DNA from: Paludisphaera borealis
GTDB taxonomy: Bacteria > Planctomycetota > Planctomycetia > Isosphaerales > Isosphaeraceae
Length of the DNA stretch: 64,000 nucleotides
Direction: 5' to 3'
NCBI RefSeq assembly: GCF_001956985.1
Contig: NZ_CP019082.1
Span: 6,634,001-6,698,000 of the forward strand
The position numbers and the translations under genes are program-made. The notes under the pieces are model-generated. The model was given only the letters and a program-made list of their open reading frames with translations. It was not told the DNA's origin and searched no databases. This document shows, one piece after another, positions 51,377 to 64,000 of the stretch (within the stretch, counting starts at the first letter, position 1; each line of letters opens with the position of its first letter).

Positions 51377-52044
51377 GGGAGGAGGCACTCGCGCCGAGCA
51401 ACGGTTGGGTCCGGAAACTGCATGGGAATCCATCGATCTCCGCGCGCTGTTCGACGACCCGAGATCAAGGCCCTTGTCACCGTCTCATGCTACGGCAATT
51501 CGTTCCTTCGCTCAACCCAACACACATCCGATCGAGTCACATTCCATCACGCACCAAAACACCCGCCCCAGCACACTCTCGCCCTTGCATGCCCACCAGA
51601 AACCTCAGCGCATTAAAAAATTCGTCAGACTGACGACGAAACCGGAAACGCGCTTTACATTTCTGTTGCCGAAGAATCGAAAGAATCCTCCGTTCCCAAT
51701 CGCTGGGCTCCTTGACAGCCCCTAAATCTAATCCATTCCCATAGAAACAGGTTTGCATACTTGGTCCGATTCTTGCACGGCCCTGCGATCCAGGGGGGTC
51801 TGCCCAAAATAGATCGCCGAAGAGTCGGCATCAAATGTGTGAAAACATGAGGCCTGAGCCATGGAAATCGGCTTGCCGGCCCAGTAGATTTACATCGCCT
51901 GAGCTATCTAGAGAGAATAGACGCTATAGGCAAACGAAGCACGTCGCACGAAATTGTGTGTGAAATCGGGGGATTCCATCAAGGGAGTGACTTCGATGGC
52001 GAACGGAGTCAGGCTTTTTTAGGCAGTCCAAGGAGATGACCGAC
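51377..52044. other. Gene-free divergent region before the YTV gene
   Basis: 668 bp between divergent genes, AT-richer than average from 51600 to 52000. No credible frame. A TTGACA hexamer at 51712-51717 could be a -35, but no good -10 lies 16-18 bases on. The region should hold the promoter of the repeat protein, whose leader would then be long. Confidence 0.4.
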
Positions 52045-53937
52045 ATGATTTTCAACAGGCGGAACATCCGCGGCATCGCAGGGGCGAGCCTGGCGACGAG
52101 CCTCTTGCTGCCGCCTTTCGCCCAGGGCGCGGACGACGCGAAGCCGTCGCCGCAATCACCGGCTCCGAGCAGTCAGGCTGCGGCCGCGGGGACGACCACG
52201 GTGCTCGTGCCTCAGACTCAGGTGACCTATGAGACCGTGTACGACCTCCAGTGCGTGCAGGTCCCGGTGACCGTCAACCAGACCCAGTACAAAACCGAAC
52301 TCCGCAACCAGACCGTCCCGGTCACTCGGGTCGTCACCGAGAACGTCCCCGTCACCGTCAACCAGACCCAGTACAAGACCGAACTCCGCAACCAGACCGT
52401 CCCGGTCACTCGGGTCGTCACCGAGAACGTCCCCGTCACCGTCAACCAGACCCAGTACAAGACCGAACTCCGCAACCAGACCGTCCCGGTCACTCGGGTC
52501 GTCACCGAGAACGTCCCCGTCACCGTCAACCAGACCCAGTACAAGACCGAACTCCGCAACCAGACCGTCCCGGTCGTCAAGACCGTCGCCGAAGTGGTGA
52601 ACGTCACCCAGACGTATACGGTCAACGTGCCGAAGCAGCAGACCGTCAACCAGACCGTGACCAAGACCGTCTACAAGCCGGTCACCACGACTCAGAAGCA
52701 GCAGCAGTACGTGACTGTGCTCAAGCCGGTGACCCGGACGGTTCTCCAGCCTCAGACCAAGACCGTGCTCACGTCGCAGGTTCAGACCAGCTACGTCAAC
52801 CAGTCCTACACCGAGAACGTGCCGGTGACCACGAATCGCCAGGTCGTCGAGGAGACGGGCGGTTACGTGACGCAGACCGTCGCGATCAACACTCCGGCCC
52901 CCGCGGTCGACGCCTGCGGCAATCCGGTGAGCGGCTACACCGGCGGTAGCGTGGGCCACGGCCACGGTCTCTTGGGCCATGGCCTCGGCCTCAAGCACGG
53001 TCACCACGGCGGCTTCGGCAGCGCCAGCCTCTTCAGCGGCGTTCTCGGCGGCTCACCCTCCGTCGGCGGCGCCAGCGCGTGCCAGACGACTTACGCCACC
53101 CAGCAAGTCTACGTTTCTCGTCCGGTCGTCCGTTGCGTTCCGGAAACGACGTACGTCGCCCAGACGCGGACGCAGGCGGTGCCGGTCCAGCAGGTCGTTC
53201 AAGTGCCCACGACAACGACCGAACTGGTGCCCGTCAGCGTCACCGAGAACGTCCCGACCCAGGAAGTCACGACGATCGACGTCCCCGTGACGACGATGCA
53301 GGCGTCGCAGGTCAGTGAGACGGTTCCGGTCACCACCACGGTGTACGTCGCCGAGCAGCGGACCCAGCAGGTGCCGATCACGCAGTACAAGCAGGTCACC
53401 GAAAACGTCACCCAGCAGTACGCCGTCCAAGTCCCCTACACGGTCCCCGTCACCACCTATCAGCAGCAGCAGAAGCAGGTCACCGAAAACGTCACCCAGC
53501 AGTACGCCGTCCAAGTCCCCTACACGGTCCCCGTCACCACCTATCAGCAGCAGCAGAAGCAGGTCACCGAAAACGTCACCCAGCAGTACGCCGTCCAGGT
53601 CCCCTACACGGTCCCCGTCACCACTTATCAGCAGCAGCAGAAGCAGGTCACCGAAAACGTCACCCAGCAGTACGCCGTCCAGGTCCCCTACACGGTCCCC
53701 GTCACCACCTATCAGCAGCAGCAGAAGCAGGTCACCGAAAACGTCACCCAGCAGTACGCCGTCCAGGTCCCCTACACGGTCCCCGTCACCACCTATCAAC
53801 AGCAGCAGAGGCAGGTGGCCCGACAGGTTCCGGTCACGCGCCAGGTTCTGGTGCCGGTGACGGTCCCTGCCGCCCCCGCCTCCGCCCCGCTGGCTTCGCC
53901 CCAGGCCGCCCGCGATCGTAAGACGAGCGTTCGCTGA
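52045..53937 (+). CDS. YTV-type planctomycete cell-wall repeat protein
   Basis: 630 aa. ATG 52045 is chosen because AAGGAG (52030-52035) lies nine bases before it; the ATG at 52036 abuts that site. Signal peptide about 1-28. Two arrays of 28-residue repeats carry the body: VPVTVNQTQYKTELRNQTVP units (four, 52261-52596) and QVTENVTQQYAVQVPYTVPV units (five, 53392-53811). Between them are Gln/Thr/Val-rich repeats and a Gly/His-rich island (about 300-330) with a few Cys. YTV repeats are known from planctomycete cell-wall fractions; a structural envelope role is likely. Extremely low charge. Confidence 0.85.
   Translation: MIFNRRNIRGIAGASLATSLLLPPFAQGADDAKPSPQSPAPSSQAAAAGTTTVLVPQTQVTYETVYDLQCVQVPVTVNQTQYKTELRNQTVPVTRVVTENVPVTVNQTQYKTELRNQTVPVTRVVTENVPVTVNQTQYKTELRNQTVPVTRVVTENVPVTVNQTQYKTELRNQTVPVVKTVAEVVNVTQTYTVNVPKQQTVNQTVTKTVYKPVTTTQKQQQYVTVLKPVTRTVLQPQTKTVLTSQVQTSYVNQSYTENVPVTTNRQVVEETGGYVTQTVAINTPAPAVDACGNPVSGYTGGSVGHGHGLLGHGLGLKHGHHGGFGSASLFSGVLGGSPSVGGASACQTTYATQQVYVSRPVVRCVPETTYVAQTRTQAVPVQQVVQVPTTTTELVPVSVTENVPTQEVTTIDVPVTTMQASQVSETVPVTTTVYVAEQRTQQVPITQYKQVTENVTQQYAVQVPYTVPVTTYQQQQKQVTENVTQQYAVQVPYTVPVTTYQQQQKQVTENVTQQYAVQVPYTVPVTTYQQQQKQVTENVTQQYAVQVPYTVPVTTYQQQQKQVTENVTQQYAVQVPYTVPVTTYQQQQRQVARQVPVTRQVLVPVTVPAAPASAPLASPQAARDRKTSVR
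52261..52596 (+). repeat. Four 84-bp coding repeats (array 1)
   Basis: Units at 52261, 52345, 52429 and 52513, each 84 bp (28 residues). The first three are nearly identical at DNA level; the fourth diverges after NQTVPV. They are in frame and coding. Confidence 0.93.
53392..53811 (+). repeat. Five 84-bp coding repeats (array 2)
   Basis: Units at 53392, 53476, 53560, 53644 and 53728, each 84 bp, differing by single synonymous bases (AAGTC/AGGTC, ACCTAT/ACTTAT, CAGCAG/CAACAG). Near-identity shows recent in-frame duplication or gene conversion. Confidence 0.95.
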
Positions 53938-54076: not shown

Positions 54077-54462
54077 GTTGATTCGACGCCAGGAACGCCG
54101 GCCCGACGGGCGCCGCCGATCAAACGGCCCTTACCCGCTGAACAGCCTGCTCGGCCGGCCAGCGTTGCAGACGGGCCGGAGCTGGATTCTCGTCTCCACC
54201 CATGGCGTGGGAGCAGGCGCCCCAAGAGCCGGATGATGGGGTTTGGTCGGCGAGGCGTTCGACGAATTCCTATGACGCCCACCCTCGCAAGACATGCTCG
54301 CGGCAGCCTGTCTTGATGACTTTCAGCAATCCAACACGCAAACCACGCCAACGGCGGCCGGAACTCGCCTGGCCTTGCGCGATGAGGAGATTGGTCGACG
54401 GATCAAGTCCGATGCACGACTCGAAGGCCCGGGCGTTGGCCCCGCTCGAAAAACCTGGGCGC

Positions 54463-54491
54463 AAAAAAAATCCCCGGTCGATGACCGGGGA
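54463..54491 (-). terminator. Intrinsic terminator of the Ala/Pro repeat gene
   Basis: Minus strand: perfect 9-bp stem TCCCCGGTC/GACCGGGGA with triloop, followed by eight T (A8 at 54463-54470). It lies 28 bp past the in-frame stop at 54520, which supports that stop as the true gene end. Confidence 0.9.
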
Positions 54492-54519
54492 CTCAAGCAG
54501 GCTCGAACTCAACGGACGA

Positions 54520-55469
54520 TCAAGCCTTCTTCGGGTTCTCGGCGGCGGGAGCCGGAGCCGGAGGAGCCGGAGCCGGGGGAGCGGGGGCCGGGGGAGCCTC
54601 ATCAGCGGCCGGAGCGGCCTCAGCCGGGGCGGCAGGGGCGGCCTCAGCCGGAGCGGCAGGAGCCGAAACGACCGGAGCGGCCTTGGCCGGGGCCGGAGCA
54701 TACGCGCCGCCTTGGGGAGCCGGCAGGGTCTTCGCCGGAGCGTAGGCCGGGGCCGCCTGAGCGGCCGGCAGCGTCTTGACCGGGGCCGGAGCCTGAGCGA
54801 CCGGCAGGGTCTTCGCCGGAGCGTAGGCCGGAGCCGCCTGAGCGGCCGGCAGCGTCTTGACCGGGGCCGGAGCCTGAGCGGCCGGCAGGGTCTTCGCCGG
54901 AGCGTAGGCCGGAGCCGCCTGAGCGGGGCCGGCAGCGTCTTGACCGGAACCGGAGCCTGAGCGGCCGGCAGGGTCTTCGCCGGAGCGTAGGCCGGAGCCG
55001 CCTGAGCGGCCGGCAGCGTCTTGACCGGAACCGGAGCCTGAGCGGCCGGCAGGGTCTTCGCCGGAGCGTAGGCCGGAGCCGCCTGAGCGGCCGGCAGCGT
55101 CTTCATCGGGGCCGGAGCCTGAGCGGCCGGCAGGGTCTTCGCCGGAGCGTAGGCCGGAGCCGCCTGAGCGGCCGGCAGCGTCTTCATCGGGGCCGGAGCC
55201 TGAGCGGCCGGCAGCATCTTCGCCGGAGCGTAGGCCGGAGCCGCCTGAGCGGCAGGCAGCGTTTTGACCGGAACCGGAGCCTGAGCGGCCGGCAGCGTCT
55301 TCATCGGGGCCGGAGCCTGAGCGGCCGGCAAGGTCTTGGCCGGAGCGTACACGACACCCTGGGGTGCCGGAGCGACGGCGGTCGGAACCTGCTTGGAGGG
55401 AACTTGAGCGTATGCGGACGTAGCCAGGGCGGCCACGGTCGCAGCGCTGAACAACCGAGTGCGCAGCAT
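54520..55469 (-). pseudogene. Frameshifted Ala/Pro-rich secreted repeat protein
   Basis: From ATG 55469 (GGAG nine bases upstream; signal peptide to AYA) the frame encodes repeats of 27 residues, LPAAQAAPAYAPAK alternating with TLPAAQAPVPVK. At about 54924-54927 two extra G (minus strand: CC) break the repeat: KTLPA is followed by PLRRLRPTLRR instead of AQAAPAYAPAK. Deleting them restores the repeats and a Pro/Ala-rich tail ending AENPKKA, stop 54520, 315 aa, just before the terminator. The broken frame instead runs to 54270 through the terminator. Either a real mutation or an assembly error in a repeat. Function unknown, probably envelope. Confidence 0.82.
54713..55345 (-). repeat. 81-bp tandem coding repeats
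   Basis: About seven units of 81 bp (27 residues) with minor differences (PVPV/PAPM in the second half, KTL/KML), in the coding region of the Ala/Pro repeat protein. Confidence 0.85.
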
Positions 55470-56059
55470 AGGTGCATTCTCCACGGTAGCCGGATCATCA
55501 AAAAAACAGATGCCTGGGGACGTCCCGGGCACGTGATCCCGTCTAGGACTCACCTAGTATACGAGATCACGGTCTGCGAGTTCTGGGAGCTTTGCGAATT
55601 TTTAGTAGATTAAATCGAGTCTTTCGCCTTGTCCAGGCTTCAGGCCTACATGATTGGCAAAATTGGCGCCTATCGCCGATCTGTAGGATCTGTAACGCTT
55701 CGGCTGACTGCATCAAACAAGGCGAAGGATTGTCTGAGTATAGGACTCGAACTCGCATCAGGCGGGGGGGTTCATCAACTTGGTCGAGCCGTAATCATTT
55801 CCGCGACTCGCGAAGCCGATTCCTCAAAAGAAGCGGTTTGGGTCTGAGCGACTGATCGACTATGCTCGAATCGTAGGATCTAGAGTTCAGGTCGGAAAGT
55901 CGCACCCGAAACCCGCGCGGTTTCAGGAGGGACGCCGACGGCCGGGCAGGGCTGCGAAGCCAGACCGACTTTATCGATTCCAGGCCGTGCCAAGCTCGAG
56001 AGCCATAGGATGGTGGTTTCAGCGAGCGTCGCGCGGGATCTCAGGGAGGGGCAGGTCGA
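55470..56059. other. Gene-free divergent region
   Basis: 590 bp between divergent genes, AT-richer between 55560 and 55830. No credible frame; one tRNA-like T-loop word at 55742-55754 does not fold into a tRNA. Likely holds promoters for both genes. Confidence 0.4.
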
Positions 56060-59000
56060 TTGATCTCCATCATCTCGGCGAGACACCGGGATCGGACCGC
56101 GCGAGCCGGTTCGCGCTGCGCGCTGGCCTGCGCCGTCGGCTTGCTGCTTTTTCTGGTTGCGATGCCCGGCTCGACTCTCGGTCAAAAGGGGTCGGACGAC
56201 TCCACGCCCGCCCCTCGGGTGATCCCGGATTCGCTCCGGTTCGCTCACGGGCTCTTCCGACAACGGAAGTTCGATCTCGCCGCCGAGGAGTATCAGCGGT
56301 TCCTGGAGACCGATCCAGCAGTCGTCGACGCCGACGACGCGCGGTTCGGCCTGGCCAGCGCGCGGCTGCTTCAAGGACGCTACAAGGAGGCGCGGTCGGC
56401 CTTTCAGGAGTTCCTGCGGCTCGCCCCGAAGCATGCGAGGGCGCGAACCGCCTGGTATCGACTTGGCGAGCTCTCTTACATGCTGGGCGATCTCCCCTCG
56501 GCCCGCGAGGCGCTCGAACGATTCACGGCCGATCCCGCTCCGCATCCCAATCTTGAGACCGCCTGGACCTATCTGGGCGACGTCCGATCGTCGCTCGACG
56601 ATCCCAAGGCCGCCCGCGAAGCCTACGAGAAATCGCTGGCGATGGCGCCCGACGCCCGCCTGGCCGACCGCGCCCGCTATGGTCTCGGGCGCTCGCTCGC
56701 GAGCCTGGGCGAGACCCAGCCGGCGATCGACGTTCTGCGCGAGGTCGTGCGTCGAGGGGCCTCGGATTGGGTCGACAAGTCGTTGCTCCAGATCGGCAAG
56801 ATCGAGGTCAACGCCGCCCGATTCGCCGACGCCGAGAAGACGTTCGACAAGCTCGCCGGCCTCGTCCCGCCGAGTTCGTTCCAGTCGGAGGCTCAGCTTC
56901 GCCGCGGCGAGGCGCTCTTGCGACTCGATCGCCACGACGAGGCCCTGCGTCTGCTCCAGCCGCTGGCGGCCGACCCGTCGCAAGCGCTCGCCGCCGACGC
57001 CTCGCTCGCCTTGGCCAGCATCGAGCTGCGTCAGGGCCACGCCGACGAGGCGCTGAAGACGCTCGACGCGACCCTCGCTCGCGCGGCGAAATCGCCTCTC
57101 GAACCGGCCCTGCTGTACCGATCGGCCGAAGCCCTCCGCGCGCTCAAGCGTCCGGACGAAGCGAAGGCGCGGTTCCTCAAGGTCGCGGAGGTCGCCCCGG
57201 CTGATCCCTGGGCCGACGACGCGTGGCTCGAAGCCGCCCGGCTCGCCCTCGACGCCGGCGACCACGCCGAGGCCGGCAAGCTCGCCGCCGCCTTTCCGGA
57301 GAAGTTCCCGAAGTCCAAGCTTGGCCCGGACGTCGTGCTGATCCAGGCTCGCGCGGCGATGAGCGGCCGTCAGCCCGAGGCGGCCGTCGGGCTCCTTGAA
57401 CCGCTGGTCGGCCCGGAAGCCAAGCCGTCCGCCGTGCTCGCTCCCGATCTGGCCGCCGCGATCCGGTACGAGTTGGCGTTGGCTTATCGAGCAACGGGCC
57501 AGGGGGCTCGGGCCGACGCGATCCTGGCGTCGTTGACGACCTCCGCCGAGGCCGGTTTCTTACTCGGTCAGAGTCACCTGGAAGCCGGGCGATACGCCGA
57601 GGCGCTCGCGGAGTTCGAACGCTACCTGAATTCCTCGCCCAAGGGACAGGTGGCCGACCACGCTCTGGCCCATCAAACCGCCGCGTATCTCGGGCTGGGC
57701 AAGCGCGACGACGCGGCGAAGTCGCTCGGCGTGCTGGCCGAGCGATTCCCCGAAAGCCCGGCGCTTCCCCCCGCGCGGCTGCGGCTGGCGGAATCGGCCT
57801 TCGCGGCCGGCGATCTCCCAAAGGCGATCGAGCAGTTCCAGATCCTTGTCGGCCCCAATCCCGCCGCCAAGGTGGAAGTCCCCCAGGCTGTTCGCGAACG
57901 CGCCGAGCTGGGGCTGGCGCGGGCGCTGTCGAAGAAGGGAGACGCCGGCGCCGCCGCGGCAATCTTCGACACGATCATCGCCCGCACCAAGGACGGGCCC
58001 CAGGCGGCCGGCCTGACGCTCGAACGCGCCCGATCGCTCGAAGCCGCCGGCAAGATCGATGAGGCGATCGCCGCCTATGAACAGCTCGAGACTCGCTTCG
58101 CGGCGGACGACTCGGTCCTTCACGCCGGCCTGGCCCGGGCGCGGCTGCTCGCCGAGTCGAAACGTCCGGAGGCCGCGGCCGAGCTGATCGGAAAACTCGT
58201 CGCCGACGAAGCCGCCCGCAAGCGGCTCACAACGATCGGCCAGCCGATCGACGCGCTGCTCGCCGAGCGGGCCTGGGCCCTCGCCGACGCCGGGAAGACG
58301 GCCGAGGCCGACGACGCGTTCGGCGAGTTGCTCAAGACCTTTCCCAACAGCGAATACGCCGCGGACGCCCGCTTCAACCTGGCCGAATCGGCCAACCAGA
58401 AGAAGGATTTCGCCGAGGTGGCGCGGCTGCTTGTTCCGCTCGTGAAACCCGACAAGCCCGACGCTCCGAAGACGCCCGACCGACTGCTTCCCGCCGTCCT
58501 CTACCGGCTGGGACGAACTCAGATCGAACTGAGCGACTGGCCGGCCGCGTCGTCGACTCTCGATCGGCTGATCGCCGAATTCGCCAACGACCGGCATCTC
58601 CGCGAAGCCCGCTTGCTCCGCGCCGAGGCGGCGCTGCGGCAAGATAGGTTCGACGCCGCCGAGTCGGATCTCTCCGCCCTGACGGCCGGACCGCCGAGCC
58701 CCGACGATCCGCCGAATTTCGCGAGCGTCGTGCGCGAGCGTCGGCTTCAGAGCCTCCTCGGCCTGAAACGCTGGAAGGACGCGCTCGCCGAGGCCGACGC
58801 CCTGAAGGCCGAGAAAACCGACTCCGCGCGCGACGTCGTCGAATTCGCACGCGGTCGGGCTCTCCTGGGCCTGGCCCGGCCCGACGACGCCCGCGCCGCC
58901 TTCCAGGCGGTGATCGAATCGCACCCGGGGAGCGAACTCGCCGCGCAAGCCCAGCTCATGCGGGGCGAGACGTACTTTCACGAGGACCGCCTTCGCGAAG

Positions 59001-59254
59001 CCAAGTTGGAGTACCTCAGGGTCGACAGCCTCTTCAACGCTCCGCGCTGGCAGGCCGCGGCGCTGCTCGAAGCCGGCAAGGTCGACGAGCGTCTCAGCCA
59101 GTGGAGCGACGCCGTCGAGACGTATAATTATTTACTCAATCGATTCCCCGACGACCCGTCCACCGTCGAGGCTAAGAACGAAGCTCGGAAGCGCCGCGCG
59201 GCGGTCCTCGATCAGCATAAAGTGAAAGAGCCGAGCGATGGCGAAGCGAAGTGA
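56060..59254 (+). CDS. 1064-residue secreted TPR protein
   Basis: 1064 aa from TTG 56060, with GGAGGGG eight bases upstream. Signal peptide about 1-41 (STLGQ). The remainder is tandem TPR and TPR-like helical repeats (KFDLAAEEYQRFLETDP; DLPKAIEQFQILVG; FLLGQSHLEAGRYAEALAEF; LLRAEAALRQDRFDAAESDL), more than 20 units by eye. No enzyme motif. As first gene of the set with an ExbB-like protein and a TonB-like toroid protein, it is probably a periplasmic scaffold for that system. Confidence 0.9.
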   Translation: MISIISARHRDRTARAGSRCALACAVGLLLFLVAMPGSTLGQKGSDDSTPAPRVIPDSLRFAHGLFRQRKFDLAAEEYQRFLETDPAVVDADDARFGLASARLLQGRYKEARSAFQEFLRLAPKHARARTAWYRLGELSYMLGDLPSAREALERFTADPAPHPNLETAWTYLGDVRSSLDDPKAAREAYEKSLAMAPDARLADRARYGLGRSLASLGETQPAIDVLREVVRRGASDWVDKSLLQIGKIEVNAARFADAEKTFDKLAGLVPPSSFQSEAQLRRGEALLRLDRHDEALRLLQPLAADPSQALAADASLALASIELRQGHADEALKTLDATLARAAKSPLEPALLYRSAEALRALKRPDEAKARFLKVAEVAPADPWADDAWLEAARLALDAGDHAEAGKLAAAFPEKFPKSKLGPDVVLIQARAAMSGRQPEAAVGLLEPLVGPEAKPSAVLAPDLAAAIRYELALAYRATGQGARADAILASLTTSAEAGFLLGQSHLEAGRYAEALAEFERYLNSSPKGQVADHALAHQTAAYLGLGKRDDAAKSLGVLAERFPESPALPPARLRLAESAFAAGDLPKAIEQFQILVGPNPAAKVEVPQAVRERAELGLARALSKKGDAGAAAAIFDTIIARTKDGPQAAGLTLERARSLEAAGKIDEAIAAYEQLETRFAADDSVLHAGLARARLLAESKRPEAAAELIGKLVADEAARKRLTTIGQPIDALLAERAWALADAGKTAEADDAFGELLKTFPNSEYAADARFNLAESANQKKDFAEVARLLVPLVKPDKPDAPKTPDRLLPAVLYRLGRTQIELSDWPAASSTLDRLIAEFANDRHLREARLLRAEAALRQDRFDAAESDLSALTAGPPSPDDPPNFASVVRERRLQSLLGLKRWKDALAEADALKAEKTDSARDVVEFARGRALLGLARPDDARAAFQAVIESHPGSELAAQAQLMRGETYFHEDRLREAKLEYLRVDSLFNAPRWQAAALLEAGKVDERLSQWSDAVETYNYLLNRFPDDPSTVEAKNEARKRRAAVLDQHKVKEPSDGEAK

Positions 59255-59330
59255 TCAAGTCGAGCCGATCATGATCGCGCATGTCGATGCAGTAGACGTC
59301 CATCGCCACAAATTGGGAAGGAACCCGTCG

Positions 59331-60194
59331 ATGAAGCCCAAGCAGCGGACAGGCCCATGGACTTGTCGGACCTTGACGTCGGGTTTGCTCTGTATCGGGC
59401 TCTTGGCCTTCGCGCCGACGGCCCGCGCGGAAGACGCGGCCGAGGACGGAAAGTCGATCGTCATCCAGCGGCGCATCGCCCGCGTCGTCAGCGAAGTCTT
59501 GATCTGGTACGAGCAGACTCCGGCCGGCGAGCGGATCGCCTGGGGAGGGCTTGCCGCGTGCATCCCGCTGGGTCTGTGCGTCGTGGCCGAACGATCGTTT
59601 CGATTGCGGAGGCGATCGGTCGTCCCCAACGACTTCACCGCCCGGTTCCTCGACCGCCTGCACGAGGGCAAGCTCGACGGCGGCAAGGCGCTCGACTATT
59701 GCGAGATGAACCCGAGCCCGGCCGCCCGCGTCGCTCTGGCCGCGGTGCGCCGCTGGGGACGACCGGCGATCGAGTTGGAACGCGCCGTCGCCCTGGCCCA
59801 CCGTTGGGAGTCGGAGCGGTTGCGGAGCAACGTCGGAACCTTGCGACGAATCACAATCCTGGCACCGCTGCTGGGCTTGCTGGGCACCCTGCTGACCTTC
59901 GACCGGATCATGACGGAAGCCGGTGCGTCGCCGCTCTCGTGGCCGGCCCTGGCCGAGGCGCTACGGCCGTCGATCCTGGGCGTGGGCATCGCGACCGCGG
60001 CCCTGGTCGCCTATGACCTCATGATGGTGCGGATCGAGCGGCTGGGCGGCGCCCTCGACCGATTGGGCGCCGAGACCGTCGACGCCGTTGCAATGACAAC
60101 TCCCGTATCGGCCCCGACCTTCCCCTCGACGCCTCACGTCCGGATCGGCGCCGGCCCGTCGGAGTCGCGGCGCGTTCCAAACTCCGGGTCATGA
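59331..60194 (+). CDS. ExbB/TolQ/MotA-family proton channel protein
   Basis: 287 aa from ATG 59331 (AAGGA upstream); ATG 59238 overlaps the TPR gene and lacks a signal peptide. An N-terminal signal peptide (to about 34) precedes three membrane helices near 58-77, 165-185 and 212-238. The LAPLLGLLGTLLTFDRIM and SILGVGIATAALVAYD segments match the TolQ/ExbB core, including the GLLGT turn. Such proteins form the pentameric stator of PMF-driven machines with ExbD/TolR. No ExbD gene is next to it, which is unusual. It lies between the TPR gene and the TonB-like gene. Confidence 0.85.
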   Translation: MKPKQRTGPWTCRTLTSGLLCIGLLAFAPTARAEDAAEDGKSIVIQRRIARVVSEVLIWYEQTPAGERIAWGGLAACIPLGLCVVAERSFRLRRRSVVPNDFTARFLDRLHEGKLDGGKALDYCEMNPSPAARVALAAVRRWGRPAIELERAVALAHRWESERLRSNVGTLRRITILAPLLGLLGTLLTFDRIMTEAGASPLSWPALAEALRPSILGVGIATAALVAYDLMMVRIERLGGALDRLGAETVDAVAMTTPVSAPTFPSTPHVRIGAGPSESRRVPNSGS

Positions 60195-60300
60195 CGACCG
60201 AGCGAGCGCGGCCTGGTGCGAGAATCAGGCGTTTCGACTATGCTGAACACGATCCGTCGTCCCGTAACGCACGGCGATCCTCGAACCTGGGCGTGAGCCG

Positions 60301-62373
60301 ATGACCGACGGTCTAGATCTGGAATCGTTCCTGCTGCTGCTGAGAGCCGACCTGGGGGCCTGGGCCTTCCTGGGCCTGGTCTCGCTGCTGCTGGCGATCC
60401 TGGTCTGGGTGAGTTGGGGATCGCGCAAGGCGCTCCGCAAGTGTCTAGCGCTGTCGATCGCCGCGCACGCGGGACTTCTGGTCGGCGGAACCAGCATGCC
60501 GGCCGTGATGAAGGCGCTCCACCCGACGCCGATCGACGCCGAGTCCGAGCCGCACATCCGACGAATCAAGGTCTCGCCGTCGCCGTCGGACGCATCGACC
60601 CGATCGGGCGGCGCGGAGTCGACCGCCAGCGTGGGCGATGCGTCCCGTCCGGCGGTCGTCGGTCCGGTCGATCGGCTTGAGGAACCGGTCGTCCTGGCAA
60701 TGCAACGGCTGCCCACGAGCCGGCCCGATCAGGAAGCGTCGACCGTCCGCGCGCCGCTCCCCGAGTCGCAGCCGCAGCCGCCGCTGGCGATCGATGAAGC
60801 CACCCCCGACGCGCCGCTCCCCCCGACCTCCGCGGAGCCGGAAACGCGATCGGCGACCAGTCCGCCTCTGTCGGCCGCCGCGCCGGCTTCCGCGCTCAAC
60901 GTCTCGGGCGACGAAACGCTGAAAGCCCCGGACGTCCCCCCGCCGCCGCGCAGCAAGGACGACGCCTCGACCACGCCCCGCGTCGCTGCATCGCTCCTTC
61001 CCGACTCGCGCCTCCGTCCGCCGTCGCCTCACGCCCGACCGGCGACCCCGAGGCCGTCGGAGAACGCGAAAGAGAGCGCCAGGCCGGTCCCCCTGGCGAT
61101 GACGACTCTCCGACCGGCCCCACCGGATCGGTCGACGCCCGTGCTGGCCGACCTCCTCGGCGCGACGGGACGGCCGACGATCACCGAGGTTCCCAAGATC
61201 TACCGCTCGCGGCTCGACGCCGACCGCTCGGCGCGAGCCGAACGCAGCGGAGCAAGCAACGCCAGCGAGCAGGCCGTGGAGCGCGCGCTCGACTGGCTGG
61301 CCCGCCATCAAGACGCGGACGGCCGGTGGGACGGCGGCACGGCTCGCTACGACGACGGCGTGGTCGTCGAGGGCGACGACGATTTCACAGTTCACTGCCC
61401 GGCTGGTCAGACCTGTTTCGGTGAGTGCGCATACTGGGAAGCCGACACCGGGCTGACCGGCCTCGCCCTCCTGACCTACCTCGGCGCGGGCTACACCCAC
61501 AAGGACGGCAAGTACGCGACGACGGTCTCCAAGGGCCTCGACTTCTTGCTGAGCCAGCAGAAGCCCGACGGCGACCTCCGAGGCGCGAGCCGGACCGTCG
61601 GCATGTATTGCCATGCGATGGCCACCCTGGCTCTCTGCGAAGCGTACGCGCTGTCGCTCGACGACAAGCTGCTCTCGGGAGCCGAGCGCGCGATCGGCTT
61701 CCTCGCACGGTCGCGCGCCCGCGACGGCCTGGCATGGCGATATGCGCCCGGCGCGGGCGTCGGCGACACGAGTATCCTGGGCTGGGTCGTGATGGCGCTT
61801 AAGTCGGCCAAGGAGATCGGCATCCCGATCGCGAATCAGGCGTCGCTCGAAAAGGGCGCCGCGCTCTGGCTCGACAAGGTCGCGAGCGGCGACGCCAAGG
61901 GGCTGGGGCGCTACCAACCCTGGGACGACGTCACGCCGACGATGACCGCCGAGGCCTGGGCCTGCCGCCAGTTCCTCGGACTCGGCGGCCCAGGCCCCAG
62001 CAGCGCCGAGGCCGCCGCCTACTTGCTCAAGCACGAATCGGACAAGGGCGACACGAACGTCTATTACTGGTATTACGCCACGCTCGCGATGTACCAGCAC
62101 GGCGGCCAACCCTGGAAGCAGTGGAACGACCGGGTCCGCAACCGCCTGGTCGGACTTCAGCGCAAGTCGGGGCATCAGGCGGGAAGCTGGGACCCCGACG
62201 CCAGCGTCTATGGCGAGCGCGGAGGGCGGATTTATTGTACCACGCTCGCCGCGCTCTCGCTCGAAGTCTACTACCGCTACCTGCGGCTGTACGACAAGCC
62301 GAGCCTCGACCACGACGCCGAAGACGACGCCCCCGCCCTCGAAGCACCGCCCGCTGGCTCGCCTCGGCCTTGA
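60301..62373 (+). CDS. TonB-like anchor fused to a terpene-cyclase-like toroid domain
   Basis: 690 aa. Two N-terminal hydrophobic segments (20-39 and 48-66); the second contains S52-x3-H56 (LSIAAHAGLL), the same S-x3-H pattern as the TonB transmembrane helix that contacts ExbB/ExbD. A Pro/Ser/Ala-rich periplasmic linker follows (about 85-310). Residues about 320-670 are a prenyltransferase/squalene-cyclase-type alpha/alpha toroid with repeats such as ALDWLARHQDADGRWDGG, GLDFLLSQQKPDGDLRG, and DVTPTMTAEAWACRQFLGL. No DxDD acid motif of squalene-hopene cyclase was seen, so catalysis is doubtful. Clustered with an ExbB-like and a TPR gene. Confidence 0.8.
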   Translation: MTDGLDLESFLLLLRADLGAWAFLGLVSLLLAILVWVSWGSRKALRKCLALSIAAHAGLLVGGTSMPAVMKALHPTPIDAESEPHIRRIKVSPSPSDASTRSGGAESTASVGDASRPAVVGPVDRLEEPVVLAMQRLPTSRPDQEASTVRAPLPESQPQPPLAIDEATPDAPLPPTSAEPETRSATSPPLSAAAPASALNVSGDETLKAPDVPPPPRSKDDASTTPRVAASLLPDSRLRPPSPHARPATPRPSENAKESARPVPLAMTTLRPAPPDRSTPVLADLLGATGRPTITEVPKIYRSRLDADRSARAERSGASNASEQAVERALDWLARHQDADGRWDGGTARYDDGVVVEGDDDFTVHCPAGQTCFGECAYWEADTGLTGLALLTYLGAGYTHKDGKYATTVSKGLDFLLSQQKPDGDLRGASRTVGMYCHAMATLALCEAYALSLDDKLLSGAERAIGFLARSRARDGLAWRYAPGAGVGDTSILGWVVMALKSAKEIGIPIANQASLEKGAALWLDKVASGDAKGLGRYQPWDDVTPTMTAEAWACRQFLGLGGPGPSSAEAAAYLLKHESDKGDTNVYYWYYATLAMYQHGGQPWKQWNDRVRNRLVGLQRKSGHQAGSWDPDASVYGERGGRIYCTTLAALSLEVYYRYLRLYDKPSLDHDAEDDAPALEAPPAGSPRP

Positions 62374-62396: not shown

Positions 62397-63614
62397 TTAC
62401 TCGTGCCGTAGTGCGTCGATCGGGTTGAGCAGCGCGGCCTTGATCGCCGGCACGAGGCCGAAGACGACGCCGGTTCCCGTCGAGATTCCAAAGCCCAGCG
62501 CCACCGCCCACCACGGGATGACGACGTTGACCATCTGGGGATGAAGGCTCGCCAGGGCGCTCATCGCGTAGCCCAGGCCGATCCCCAGCGCACCACCCAG
62601 CAAGCTAAGGAATACGGCCTCGATCAAGAATTGCAACAGGATGTCGCGTCGGCGCGCGCCAACGGCCTTACGCAGGCCGATCTCGCGAGTCCGCTCGGTC
62701 ACGCTGACCAGCATGACGTTCATGATCCCGATGCCGCCGACGAGCAGCGAGACCCCGACGATCCCCGCCAGCACCGCCGTCGCCACGAGGCTGAGGCTGT
62801 TGAAAGCTTCGAGGATCTCGTCCTGGGTCACGATGTTGAAATCGTTGGGCTGATAGGCGTCGAGCCGATGACGGCGGCGTAGCAAGTTGACGATCTGCGC
62901 CCGGGCCTCGGGAACCGCCAGTTCCGACGTCGCCTGGGCCGTCATGGCGATCTTGCGCTGGAGCGCGGGGTACATCTTGAGAGCCATGGTGTACGGGATC
63001 AAAACCAGGTTGTCCTGGCTGTTGCCGAAGAAACTCCCTTTCTCTTCGAGAACGCCGATCACCTGAAACCGCCGGCCCGCGAGCAAGATCGTCTGGCCCA
63101 CGACGCCTTCATCGAGGTTGAGCTTACGAAGGACCTCGCGACCCAGAATGCAGACGTGATGTCGCTCCTCGACGTCGACGATCGAGAAGGGACGGCCGAT
63201 CGCGACGTGGAAATTGCGGATCGCGTGGTACGGGGCCGACGCCCCCTCGACCGGCACACGAAGTTCGTCGCGTCCGTATTGCAGCAAGGCGTCGGGGGGC
63301 TTCACCAGCGGCGAGATCCGCCGCAACGCGGGGCAGCCGTCCTCGATCGCCGCGATATCGCGCTCGTCGAGCACGATCCGCCCCAGCCGCTTCCCCGCCT
63401 CCCCCCCGGGCCGTTCGGGCCAGACCCACATGGCGTTCGTCCCCAGCCCCTGCAAGAACTCGGCGACATACCGCGTGAACCCCTGGACGACTCCGACGAC
63501 CGTGATCGTCGACGTCACCGCGATCACGATCCCCAGCACCGTGAGCAGCGACCGAAACCGATGCGCCCACAACTGCTCGAAGGCGTTCCAGACGTTGGCC
63601 AGTGCGATCCTCAC
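62397..63614 (-). CDS. MacB-type ABC transporter permease
   Basis: 405 aa from GTG 63614, preferred because the longer frame to 63668 would overlap the Uma2 gene end. N-terminal helix with FRSLLTVLGIVIAVTSTITVVG, a large periplasmic MacB_PCD-type domain (50-270), then three C-terminal helices (FtsX domain) with VGGIGIMNVMLVSVTERTRE and LRKAVGARRRDILLQFLIEA. No ATPase gene is adjacent inside the window, so the partner is elsewhere. Convergent with the TonB-like gene. Confidence 0.88.
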   Translation of the reverse strand: MRIALANVWNAFEQLWAHRFRSLLTVLGIVIAVTSTITVVGVVQGFTRYVAEFLQGLGTNAMWVWPERPGGEAGKRLGRIVLDERDIAAIEDGCPALRRISPLVKPPDALLQYGRDELRVPVEGASAPYHAIRNFHVAIGRPFSIVDVEERHHVCILGREVLRKLNLDEGVVGQTILLAGRRFQVIGVLEEKGSFFGNSQDNLVLIPYTMALKMYPALQRKIAMTAQATSELAVPEARAQIVNLLRRRHRLDAYQPNDFNIVTQDEILEAFNSLSLVATAVLAGIVGVSLLVGGIGIMNVMLVSVTERTREIGLRKAVGARRRDILLQFLIEAVFLSLLGGALGIGLGYAMSALASLHPQMVNVVIPWWAVALGFGISTGTGVVFGLVPAIKAALLNPIDALRHE

Positions 63615-63648
63615 GGCGAAGTCGTCCCCTGAATTCCTGGAGCTTGCG

Positions 63649-64000
63649 TCACTCGAACAGCCGACCAACCACGACGGAGAATCCCGGAAGAATCTCTGGA
63701 TACGTCAACTCGTCGTTTCGCCCCAAGGTCCGAGGCGCGCTCTCGGCGCCGTGCACGACGGCGATCTCGTCGTCGAGGTCGAGCACGGTGACGAATAGAA
63801 CACCCGCGTTCAGGTACTCGGCGATTTTCTTCAAGACGTCCGACCAGCGATCGCTCGGCGACTTCACCTCGAAAACAAGCTCGGGAATCTCCGGCCCGTA
63901 CCCGGTCGATCGCGAGCTTTCGGGAAGCCTCTCGTAGCTGTAATACGCCACATCGGCACCTCGCACAGTGTCGGGATTGCGCTCGGTGACGATCGCTGAA
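63649..64000 (-). CDS. Uma2 family protein, 5' end outside the window
   Basis: The minus-strand frame is open from the window edge to the stop at 63649; 117 codons are present. The sequence AIVTERNPDTVRGADVAYYS, PEIPELVFEVKSPSDRW and EYLNAGVLFVTVLD is the conserved second half of Uma2 (DUF820), including the E-x-K-type catalytic strand FEVKS. The N-terminal third lies beyond 64000; an internal GTG at 63966 is not the true start. Its stop is close upstream of the MacB-type gene on the same strand. Confidence 0.85.
   Translation of the reverse strand, partial: SAIVTERNPDTVRGADVAYYSYERLPESSRSTGYGPEIPELVFEVKSPSDRWSDVLKKIAEYLNAGVLFVTVLDLDDEIAVVHGAESAPRTLGRNDELTYPEILPGFSVVVGRLFE

What the first reader, a model, noticed from the sequence alone, without database searches (positions are those of the whole stretch)
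56060..62373. ExbB-like protein next to a TonB-like protein whose C-terminus is a cyclase-type toroid, plus a giant TPR protein
Seen: the 690-aa protein has a membrane helix with S52-x3-H56, a long Pro-rich linker and a terpene-cyclase-like alpha/alpha toroid instead of a TonB receptor-binding domain. Next to it are an ExbB/TolQ-type protein and a 1064-aa secreted TPR protein. Known: TonB uses S16-x3-H20 in its membrane helix to couple with ExbB/ExbD. Inference: a PMF-driven machine that moves or opens a toroid domain in the periplasm. No ExbD gene is adjacent. I know of no described system with this arrangement.
Basis: partly seen in the sequence, partly recalled or inferred. Interest (0 to 1): 0.7.

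Follow-up and report, generated by a model that had tools for sequence, protein, structure and literature searches.

The report
Toroid-headed TonB-like protein with split motor
These planctomycete bacteria carry a membrane protein that looks built to be pulled by a proton-driven motor like the one that drives iron uptake in other bacteria, but its working end is a ring-shaped domain shaped like terpene cyclases; in the window's own family the working motor seems to sit elsewhere on the chromosome and the motor gene beside it has lost key residues.

Summary
The genes are real: a secreted TPR protein, an ExbB-like protein and a 690-aa protein with S52-x3-H56 in its second membrane helix, a 235-aa Pro-rich linker and a confidently predicted toroid. 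Outside the window's family, 62 of 66 loci read have ExbD just upstream of the toroid gene and 46 also ExbB. H56 is invariant in 89 of 89 aligned proteins; S precedes it in 92 of 96.

"No ExbD adjacent" is a trait of the window's family (0 of 33 loci). All 21 family genomes read carry a separate ExbB-ExbD pair of the same lineage (0.97 Mb away in the window's genome) that keeps the proton-path residues and the ExbB Ser aligned with the S/H contact. The ExbB type beside the toroid has lost that Ser (28 of 29) and the second channel Thr (29 of 29; Ser in the window). Best reading: a toroid-headed force transducer driven in trans by that pair.

No TonB C-domain or receptor plug was found in 37 family genomes. 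Nearest described system: TPR-TolQ-TolR-vWA (2025). The head is new; the arrangement is not. Nothing was tested biochemically.

The parts
56060..59254 (+). Secreted TPR-repeat protein, 1064 aa (TTG start, N-terminal signal-like helix); first gene of the cassette
   Evidence: TPR_16 E=1.9e-58 and others; a TPR gene upstream of the toroid in 22 of 33 family loci and 41 of 66 other loci, 5 of the 41 by weak hits more than 4.4 kb off
59331..60194 (+). ExbB/TolQ-like protein, 287 aa (ORF opens at 59238); derived copy: TM1 Ser position is I78, TM2 Thr kept (T186), TM3 Thr position is S214 after P213, D229 at the position of E. coli Asn196
   Evidence: Pfam MotA_ExbB 4.6e-10; residues; trees
60301..62373 (+). 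Toroid-headed TonB/TolA-like protein, 690 aa
60352..60414 (+). TM1 of the toroid protein (residues 18-38), predicted to run from periplasm to cytoplasm; preceded by D17 (60349-60351), acidic at that distance from the His in 32 of 32 family proteins and 0 of 64 others
   Evidence: orientation inferred from the positive loop and from relatives with an N-terminal PD40 propeller
60430..60489 (+). TM2 of the toroid protein (residues 44-63) with S52 (60454-60456) and H56 (60466-60468)
   Evidence: H56 89 of 89, S52 at least 90%; S four before the His in 92 of 96, A in the other 4
60490..61194 (+). Pro-rich linker, 235 aa, 45 Pro, predicted mostly disordered, presumably periplasmic
61195..62280 (+). 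alpha/alpha toroid domain, residues about 299-660
   Evidence: AlphaFold; VIA-align Z 26.6 to squalene-hopene cyclase 2sqc, 23-24 to cellobiose 2-epimerases

Best explanation
The 690-aa protein is a TonB/TolA-type force transducer with a new kind of head. TM2 carries the S-x3-H that docks such proteins on TM1 of an ExbB/TolQ pentamer, the Pro-rich linker spans the periplasm, and the toroid grips a partner (the co-encoded TPR protein, an outer-membrane or cell-wall component, or a small ligand in its conserved pocket). Proton flow through an ExbB5-ExbD2 motor pulls or twists it. In most loci read outside the window's family the motor is encoded with it (TPR-ExbB-ExbD-toroid, or ExbD-toroid with TPR-ExbB elsewhere). 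In the window's family (Isosphaeraceae by inference; the window is probably a Paludisphaera) the working motor is a separate ExbB-ExbD pair acting in trans, and the ExbB type still beside the toroid is a derived, non-canonical copy kept under selection for another role. Shown: gene linkage, residue conservation, lineage of the separate pair, predicted fold. Inferred: docking, proton drive, force transfer, the pairing in trans. Unknown: what the toroid binds.
For: Linkage: ExbD within 0.7 kb upstream of the toroid in 62 of 66 loci outside the family, ExbB within 3 kb in 46, TPR in 41. S four before the TM His: 32 of 32 family and 60 of 64 other proteins, A in the other 4 (this scan picks the most hydrophobic His, so it measures S, not H); H itself 89 of 89 in an alignment; 7 of 831 background TM segments hold S-x3-H. 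Separate motor: in the own genome at G000:C1 5721211-5722611 (L073), about 0.97 Mb from the cassette; a second ExbB hit of this strength in 33 of 37 family genomes, the 4 without being 68-81% complete; ExbD next to it in 21 of 21 read. Lineage: cassette-type, separate and outgroup ExbB form one clade, 97/97 (long-branch L074 and L075 left out; 82 with them); ExbD of the separate pair sits with outgroup cassette ExbD, 83/86, and grouping with the genome's other ExbDs is rejected, AU p = 5e-87. Residues: TM2 and TM3 Thr 21 of 21 and ExbD Asp25 21 of 21 in the separate pair; TM3 Thr 0 of 29 in the cassette type; TM1 Ser 21 of 21 versus 1 of 29. Three genomes at least 92% complete (G011, G019, G033) show no cassette-type ExbB but do show the separate type; in two, the TPR and toroid genes abut with no ExbB between (L082, L090). 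No TonB_C or Plug in 37 family genomes.
Against: No interaction, proton flow or phenotype was tested. Only S and H of the SHLS motif are present: the Leu and last Ser positions are not conserved (H+7 is G in 30 of 32 family proteins, A in 36 of 64 others; H+11 is P in 24 of 32, varied in the others). A TM profile does not recognise TolA or TonB as relatives (TolA E = 7.8, rank about 18; TonB not listed at E 100), so homology of that helix is not shown. TM3 Pro190, proposed as relay to TonB/TolA (PMC12905483, passage), is absent from the separate ExbB (0 of 21 keep it) as from the cassette type (0 of 29), though kept in 50 of 50 outgroup ExbBs. Two other motor clusters of the own genome (L072, L074) also show no S-x3-H transducer in the 14 kb read, so the separate pair is not the only motor without a local partner. 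In other classes 13 of 20 toroid loci have S-x3-H in a hydrophobic helix with no ExbB in the stretch, and 5 of 20 show no such motif. In the window itself the TM3 change is conservative (Thr to Ser) and the TM2 Thr is kept.
Confidence: 0.6

Rival explanations
1. Anchored periplasmic enzyme or binding protein: the toroid does the work (sugar, lipid or polymer chemistry), ExbB/ExbD neighbours only organise or anchor it, and force is not transmitted.
For: 29 polar, charged or aromatic residues are kept in at least 97% of 89 proteins, 28 of them in the toroid (W479-R480-Y481, D489, S491, E447, E551, Y588, Y591, Y592 and others), which looks like an active or ligand site. Structural neighbours are enzymes: squalene-hopene cyclases, cellobiose 2-epimerases, GH76.
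Against: Does not explain invariant H and near-invariant S in TM2, nor an ExbD just upstream in 62 of 66 loci. The cyclase D-x-D-D[TSA] motif is in only 14 of 89 toroids and D-x-D-D is absent from the window protein.
Confidence: 0.22
2. Rewired motor: the adjacent ExbB works without ExbD, an acidic residue at the start of the toroid protein's TM1 (D17) or D229 of ExbB standing in for the ExbD aspartate.
For: D17 position is acidic in 32 of 32 family proteins and 0 of 64 others; D229 is Asp in 29 of 29 cassette-type ExbBs and in none of the other 84 ExbBs compared. vWA proteins that take ExbD's place in TolQ pentamers are proposed in PMC12204202 (section 8).
Against: Both traits are confined to one family, so the correlation may be a single event. 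TM1 is predicted to run opposite to ExbD's helix and its Asp lies at the membrane edge. The TM3 Thr is gone in 29 of 29 (Ser in the window). A canonical pair of the same lineage exists in the same genomes.
Confidence: 0.08
3. Decoupled relic: in Isosphaeraceae the toroid no longer needs any motor; the adjacent ExbB is a decaying remnant.
For: The cassette-type ExbB lost channel and docking residues, lies away from the toroid in six genomes (G006, G007, G010, G024, G027, G036) and was not found in three genomes at least 92% complete.
Against: dN/dS of this ExbB is 0.20-0.36 between genus-mates, like the toroid's 0.23-0.44, so it is under selection; S-x3-H stays 32 of 32 in the family.
Confidence: 0.1

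Closest known systems
vWA force transducers beside TPR-tolQ-tolR genes (Williams-Jones et al. 2025, PMC12204202; abstract, passages and section 8 read)
   Same: TPR gene, TolQ-like gene, TolR-like gene(s), then a transducer with S/H in its TM helix, a Pro-rich linker and a globular head unlike TonB/TolA; reported in Planctomycetes too
   Different: Head is a von Willebrand A fold, motor has a pair of TolR-like genes, one TM helix; here the head is an alpha/alpha toroid, one ExbD (none locally in the window's family), two TM helices. The paper's main text has no 'toroid', 'cyclase' or 'squalene'
TonB-ExbB-ExbD (E. coli)
   Same: ExbB/ExbD motor, S16-x3-H20 TM helix, Pro-rich linker
   Different: No TonB C-domain (0 of 37 family genomes) and no receptor plug (0 of 37); Leu and second Ser of SHLS absent
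Tol-Pal (TolQ-TolR-TolA-TolB-Pal-CpoB)
   Same: A TPR partner (CpoB-like), TolQ/TolR-type motor; in two loci of other planctomycete classes the toroid protein carries PD40 beta-propeller repeats, the repeat type of TolB (L225, L228)
   Different: No TolB N-domain in 59 of 59 genomes; head is not TolA domain III (toroid)
Squalene-hopene cyclases and other alpha/alpha toroid enzymes
   Same: Fold (Z 26.6 to 2sqc)
   Different: Catalytic D-x-D-D absent in the window protein, membrane anchor and motor linkage

Membership tests
TonB/TolA-type force transducers | TM helix with S-x3-H | tested here: met
   S before the His in 92 of 96, A in the other 4; H 89 of 89 in the alignment
TonB/TolA-type force transducers | Full SHLS motif (Ser-3X-His-6X-Leu-3X-Ser, definition from a passage of PMC12905483) | tested here: not met
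   Leu and second Ser positions not conserved; E. coli TonB and TolA have them
TonB/TolA-type force transducers | Pro-rich or extended periplasmic linker | tested here: met
   235 aa, 45 Pro, low pLDDT
TonB/TolA-type force transducers | TonB_C / TolA domain III head | tested here: not met
   Toroid instead; no TonB_C match in own genome
TonB/TolA-type force transducers | TM homologous to TolA/TonB | tested here: inconclusive
   TM profile gives TolA E = 7.8, not significant
TonB/TolA-type force transducers | Docks on the motor and transmits force | not testable with these tools
   Needs interaction and functional assays
ExbB/TolQ/MotA proton channels (cassette-type ExbB) | Sequence family | tested here: met
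   PF01618 4.6e-10; profile A1 matches TolQ/ExbB chains of PDB, best 7.4e-11
ExbB/TolQ/MotA proton channels (cassette-type ExbB) | TM2 and TM3 Thr of the channel | tested here: not met
   TM3 Thr 0 of 29; TM2 Thr 11 of 29; window has T186 and S214
ExbB/TolQ/MotA proton channels (cassette-type ExbB) | Encoded with an ExbD/TolR partner | tested here: not met
   ExbD beside the toroid in 0 of 33 family loci
ExbB-ExbD motor (separate pair, L073 type) | Thr148, Thr181 and ExbD Asp25 equivalents | tested here: met
   21 of 21 each
Squalene-hopene (class II) cyclases | alpha/alpha toroid fold | tested here: met
   Z 26.6, 3.1 A over 291 residues to 2sqc
Squalene-hopene (class II) cyclases | Catalytic D-x-D-D motif (recalled) | tested here: not met
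   Absent in window protein; D-x-D-D[TSA] in 14 of 89
Tol-Pal system | TolB | tested here: not met
   PF04052 0 of 59 genomes; control rings in E. coli, Caulobacter, Bacteroides

The most novel reading that the evidence does not exclude
Planctomycetes use a phylum-wide class of motor-driven transducers whose head is a cyclase-type toroid with a working ligand pocket, so that proton motive force moves or reloads a bound isoprenoid or glycan across the periplasm in cells that have neither TonB nor TolB. In Isosphaeraceae the motor was duplicated: one copy, directly next to a DedA-type (VTT) gene in 17 of 21 loci, stays the engine, and the copy beside the toroid became a non-conducting clutch or scaffold.
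Probability: 0.15. Interest if true: 0.85.

Novelty: new variant of a known kind. Interest (0 to 1): 0.62.

Why it matters
ExbB/ExbD motors are known mainly through TonB and TolA. The window's genome keeps several ExbB/ExbD genes, but no TonB C-domain and no TonB-receptor plug was found in its family, so what those motors drive is an open question. This names a concrete candidate, common in the class and testable by point mutation. It also gives a natural case of a motor subunit that stayed beside its transducer yet lost proton-path residues and the TM1 serine while a separate copy kept them, which bears on which residues serve coupling and which serve assembly.

Tried and rejected
Hidden ExbD between ExbB and toroid in the window: 106 nt only; an ExbD HMM finds none near any of the 33 family loci. 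In L084, L086 and L092 the gap is 1.0-1.8 kb; nothing ExbD-like passed E 1e-3 there.

Profile proof that TM2 is homologous to TolA/TonB: not significant. The PDB profile hit to TolA (E about 5e-4) spans the low-complexity linker and was not used as proof.

'The separate pair is the only motor without a transducer': not true, L072 and L074 also show none nearby, so it is not claimed. 'S-x3-H always goes with an adjacent motor': not true for toroids of other classes.

Duplication of ExbB inside Isosphaeraceae is the best tree but weak (78/35); the alternative that the separate ExbB groups with outgroup cassettes alone is not rejected (AU p = 0.22).

Structure library: a family not listed there is not excluded; no new fold is claimed. 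Complex prediction of toroid with ExbB was not possible with the tools.

Rows dropped and selection: the motif counts leave out second-family or truncated toroids (L076, L078/1873, L080/1348, L081/14756, L109, L116/2, L157/1258, L165/12463, L180, L181) and f3 loci L182-L185; one search leaves out the same except L109, L180 and L181, which it counts. The f3 loci do have an ExbB-ExbD-ExbD cluster of another lineage within a few kb of a toroid. Of the 95 toroid refs, 88 plus the window went into alignment A3. The ExbD tree used 66 of 105 sequences and the ExbB trees 71 and 46 of 113. Toroid loci were best-scoring hits, chosen neither at random nor by linkage, so they lean to cassette-like toroids; lower-scoring paralogues were not surveyed, and 34 of 248 class genomes had no hit at E 1e-40. 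The 20 loci were chosen because ExbB had been found there; the ExbD beside it was not selected for. Of the 29 cassette-type ExbBs, 22 are at toroid loci and 7 were fetched elsewhere in their genomes (L171-L177). TM1 Ser was scorable in 48 of 50 outgroup ExbBs and its match to the E. coli Ser is my own alignment by eye; a first looser pattern gave many wrong placements and was discarded.


Full report
WHAT IS THERE. The window lies at G000:C1 6634001-6698000 of a 7.65-Mb genome. Its genus-mate G003 has a contig of the same length (257346) as Paludisphaera soli NZ_JAALJI010000008.1, and G031 one of the same length (9629675) as Singulisphaera acidiphila NC_019892.1, so I take the window to be a Paludisphaera and family f1 to be Isosphaeraceae; this is inference from contig lengths. 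Three co-directional genes are present: TPR 56060-59254, ExbB-like 59331-60194 (ORF opens at 59238), toroid 60301-62373. Pfam confirms TPR and MotA_ExbB (E 4.6e-10) and gives only a weak SQHop_cyclase_C match for the toroid. A convergent MacB/FtsX-type permease follows (62397-63668); it recurs in the genus and in two other genera of the family but in few other loci.

TOPOLOGY AND FOLD. AlphaFold on an 89-sequence alignment: short helix 7-15, TM1 18-38, TM2 44-63, disordered linker to about 290, toroid about 299-660 with pLDDT mostly above 90. The loop between TM1 and TM2 is positively charged, so TM1 should run out-to-in and TM2 in-to-out, placing the toroid in the periplasm and S52/H56 in the cytoplasm-near part of TM2, as in TonB (inference). 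Two loci from other planctomycete classes fit this orientation: L225 and L228 encode TPR-ExbB-ExbD and then one protein with PD40 beta-propeller repeats before TM1, then TM2 (S-x3-H in L225, A-x3-H in L228), a long linker and the toroid. VIA-align puts the toroid nearest squalene-hopene cyclase (2sqc Z 26.6, 3.1 A, 291 residues), then drimenyl diphosphate synthase (about 24) and cellobiose 2-epimerases (about 23-24). The window protein has no D-x-D-D. Many toroid residues are kept across 89 proteins (W479, R480, Y481, D489, S491, E447, E551, Y588, Y591, Y592 and others), so a conserved pocket or surface is likely.

(1) Linkage. I read the gene order around best toroid hits of relatives. Outside Isosphaeraceae, 62 of 66 loci have an ExbD on the same strand within 0.7 kb upstream of the toroid, 46 an ExbB within 3 kb, 41 a TPR gene (5 of these by weak hits more than 4.4 kb off); the usual order is TPR-ExbB-ExbD-toroid. 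Of the 4 without ExbD one starts at a contig end (L181) and three do not (L109, L146, L162). In family f2 the set is often split: ExbD-toroid in one place and TPR-ExbB in another (L186-L188, L190). In Isosphaeraceae 0 of 33 loci have ExbD, 21 have ExbB within 3 kb (one more, L079, about 6 kb off) and 22 TPR; of the 12 without ExbB within 3 kb four begin within 600 nt of a contig end. (2) S52/H56. Taking the most hydrophobic His of the N-terminal part, the residue four before it is S in 32 of 32 Isosphaeraceae and 60 of 64 others, A in the other four. The His itself is 89 of 89 in the alignment. Background: 7 of 831 TM segments in non-toroid ORFs. Only S and H of the SHLS motif are kept, and a TM profile does not pick out TolA or TonB significantly.

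THE MISSING ExbD. The own genome has 7 ExbD and 6 MotA_ExbB matches, none of the ExbDs near the window. One ExbB-ExbD pair, L073 (ExbB 5721688-5722611, ExbD 5721211-5721663, minus strand), scores highest of the own genome's non-cassette genes with the cassette models. A second ExbB hit of this strength is in 33 of 37 Isosphaeraceae genomes; the four without it are 68-81% complete. I read 21 of these loci and all 21 hold ExbD next to ExbB. The pair is never at the toroid locus but not always far: by the coordinates it lies roughly 25-70 kb from the toroid in G001, G002, G004 and G005, and about 0.97 Mb in the window's genome. In an ExbB tree the cassette-type, separate and outgroup-cassette ExbBs form one clade (97/97, without the long-branch L074 and L075; 82 with them), apart from the genome's L071 and L072 ExbBs; joining the separate ExbBs to those two is rejected (AU p 2.7e-8). 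In the ExbD tree the separate ExbDs sit with cassette ExbDs (83/86, not starred), and joining them to the genome's other ExbDs is rejected (AU p 5e-87). So the simplest reading is that ExbD was not lost but relocated with a copy of ExbB. Whether the duplication happened inside Isosphaeraceae is not settled (78/35; alternative AU p 0.22).

THE ExbB LEFT BEHIND. At the E. coli Thr148 and Thr181 positions (called essential in PMC12905483, passages seen) outgroup cassette ExbBs have T,T in 50 of 50 and the separate ExbBs in 21 of 21; the 29 cassette-type Isosphaeraceae ExbBs (22 at toroid loci, 7 elsewhere) have T148 as S 14, T 11, A 3, G 1 and T181 as L 22, F 2, V 2, S 1, C 1, I 1, with Pro just before it in 28 and Asp at N196 in 29. 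The window is the mildest case, the one with Ser: T186 and S214. ExbD Asp25 is kept in all 105 ExbDs compared. The TM1 Ser position that I align with the Ser said to contact the S/H of TonB/TolA (PMC12905483, passage seen) is S in 47 of 48 scorable outgroup ExbBs, 21 of 21 separate, 1 of 29 cassette-type. Against a simple story, TM3 Pro190 is absent from both Isosphaeraceae types (0 of 21 and 0 of 29) and kept in 50 of 50 outgroup ExbBs. The cassette-type ExbB is not a pseudogene: dN/dS 0.20-0.36 between genus-mates. In three genomes at least 92% complete it was not found (G011, G019, G033), and in L082 and L090 the TPR and toroid genes abut; S-x3-H persists in both. In six genomes (G006, G007, G010, G024, G027, G036) it lies away from the toroid; in G020 it is on another contig, but both genes sit at contig ends, so linkage cannot be told.

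A second family-wide trait is an acidic residue at the start of the toroid protein's TM1 (D17; 31 D and 1 E of 32, against 0 of 64 outside). It may be a single event, so it is only a lead.

WHAT THE GENOMES LACK. TonB_C: 0 of 37 Isosphaeraceae, 5 of 59 genomes in all. TonB-receptor Plug: 0 of 37, 8 of 59. TolB_N: 0 of 59. All three searches ring in E. coli, Caulobacter and Bacteroides controls. So no classical TonB client of ExbB/ExbD was found in this family, and the toroid protein is the best candidate client found.

BREADTH. In the class, 214 of 248 genomes have a toroid at E 1e-40. In the phylum sample, 207 of 244 at E 1e-15. Of 20 toroid loci read from other classes, 2 have ExbB-ExbD beside the toroid (L225, L228), 13 have a toroid with S-x3-H in a hydrophobic helix and no ExbB in the stretch, and 5 (L222-L224, L231, L232) show neither. 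A similar protein in the window's own genome is L076. They may use motors in trans, or the motif may serve something else there.

KNOWN SYSTEMS. Williams-Jones et al. 2025 (PMC12204202; [quoted passage not shown] The own genome has what looks like one: in L071, ExbB-ExbD-ExbD is followed, one gene on, by a protein with S-x3-H and a sub-threshold vWA match (VWA_3 E 2.2e-5, 25 bits against a cut-off of 27). The toroid system looks like the same kind of machine with another head. The paper's text holds no 'toroid', 'cyclase' or 'squalene'. Searches for planctomycetes+ExbB+TonB+squalene (0 papers), planctomycet+ExbB+ExbD (17), ExbB+terpene cyclase+TonB (1, on Collimonas; listing only), force transducer/TolQ/ExbB/toroid (7) and planctomycet+TolA+Tol-Pal (4) listed none whose title or abstract start describes the toroid system; I saw passages of five papers (PMC12204202, PMC2754498, PMC12505986, PMC12905483, PMC8871954) and none of those passages does. 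The library is open-access only. PMC2754498 (one passage seen) reports exbB and exbD induced by salt in Rhodopirellula baltica; whether those are the cassette genes was not checked.

MECHANISM, STEP BY STEP. Shown: conserved cassette, S/H, Pro-rich linker, toroid, a separate motor of the same lineage with intact channel residues. Inferred: TM2 docks by S/H on TM1 Ser of the motor's ExbB; proton flow past ExbD Asp and the Thr ring drives it; the linker passes force to the toroid; the TPR protein, as in the vWA cassettes, is its periplasmic partner. The cassette-type Isosphaeraceae ExbB may be a scaffold, a modulator or part of a mixed pentamer; no data choose among these. The DedA-type gene directly beside the separate pair on the same strand in 17 of 21 loci (VTT domain in 3 of 3 tested) and the isoprenoid-enzyme fold of the head make a lipid cargo thinkable, but that is speculation.

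Noticed in passing
L073:5427-6128 (-), own genome G000:C1 about 5720426-5721127, and 16 more loci among L192-L209: A DedA-type (VTT domain in 3 of 3 tested) membrane protein gene lies directly beside the separate ExbB-ExbD pair on the same strand in 17 of 21 loci. Possibly a functional link between the motor and lipid-carrier translocation.
   Followed up: partly
L225:3156-7403 and L228:2636-6640: In two genomes of other planctomycete classes the toroid protein carries TolB-like PD40 beta-propeller repeats in its N-terminal part and follows TPR-ExbB-ExbD.
   Followed up: partly
L227, L229, L230, L233-L240 and own genome L076:7073-8836: Toroid proteins, mostly 500-650 aa, with S-x3-H in a hydrophobic N-terminal helix and no ExbB in the stretch read occur across the phylum, some in tandem (L229, L234, L235, L237, L238).
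   Followed up: partly
L071:5207-9300 (own genome): ExbB-ExbD-ExbD and, one gene on, a protein with S-x3-H and a sub-threshold vWA match: a likely case of the vWA force transducers of PMC12204202.
   Followed up: partly
window 54270-55553 (-): 427-aa ORF whose first half is repeats of the type PVKTLPAAQAAPAYAPAKTLPAAQAP and whose second half turns Arg/Leu-rich, as if the same repeat DNA were read in another frame; perhaps a repeat array with frame-changing copies.
   Followed up: no
window 52036-53937 (+): 633-aa protein with near-identical tandem repeats (VTVNQTQYKTELRNQTVPVTRVVTENVP and VTENVTQQYAVQVPYTVPVTTYQQQQKQ).
   Followed up: no
toroid protein D17 (window 60349-60351): Acidic residue at the start of TM1 in 32 of 32 Isosphaeraceae toroid proteins and 0 of 64 others; role unknown.
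   Followed up: partly
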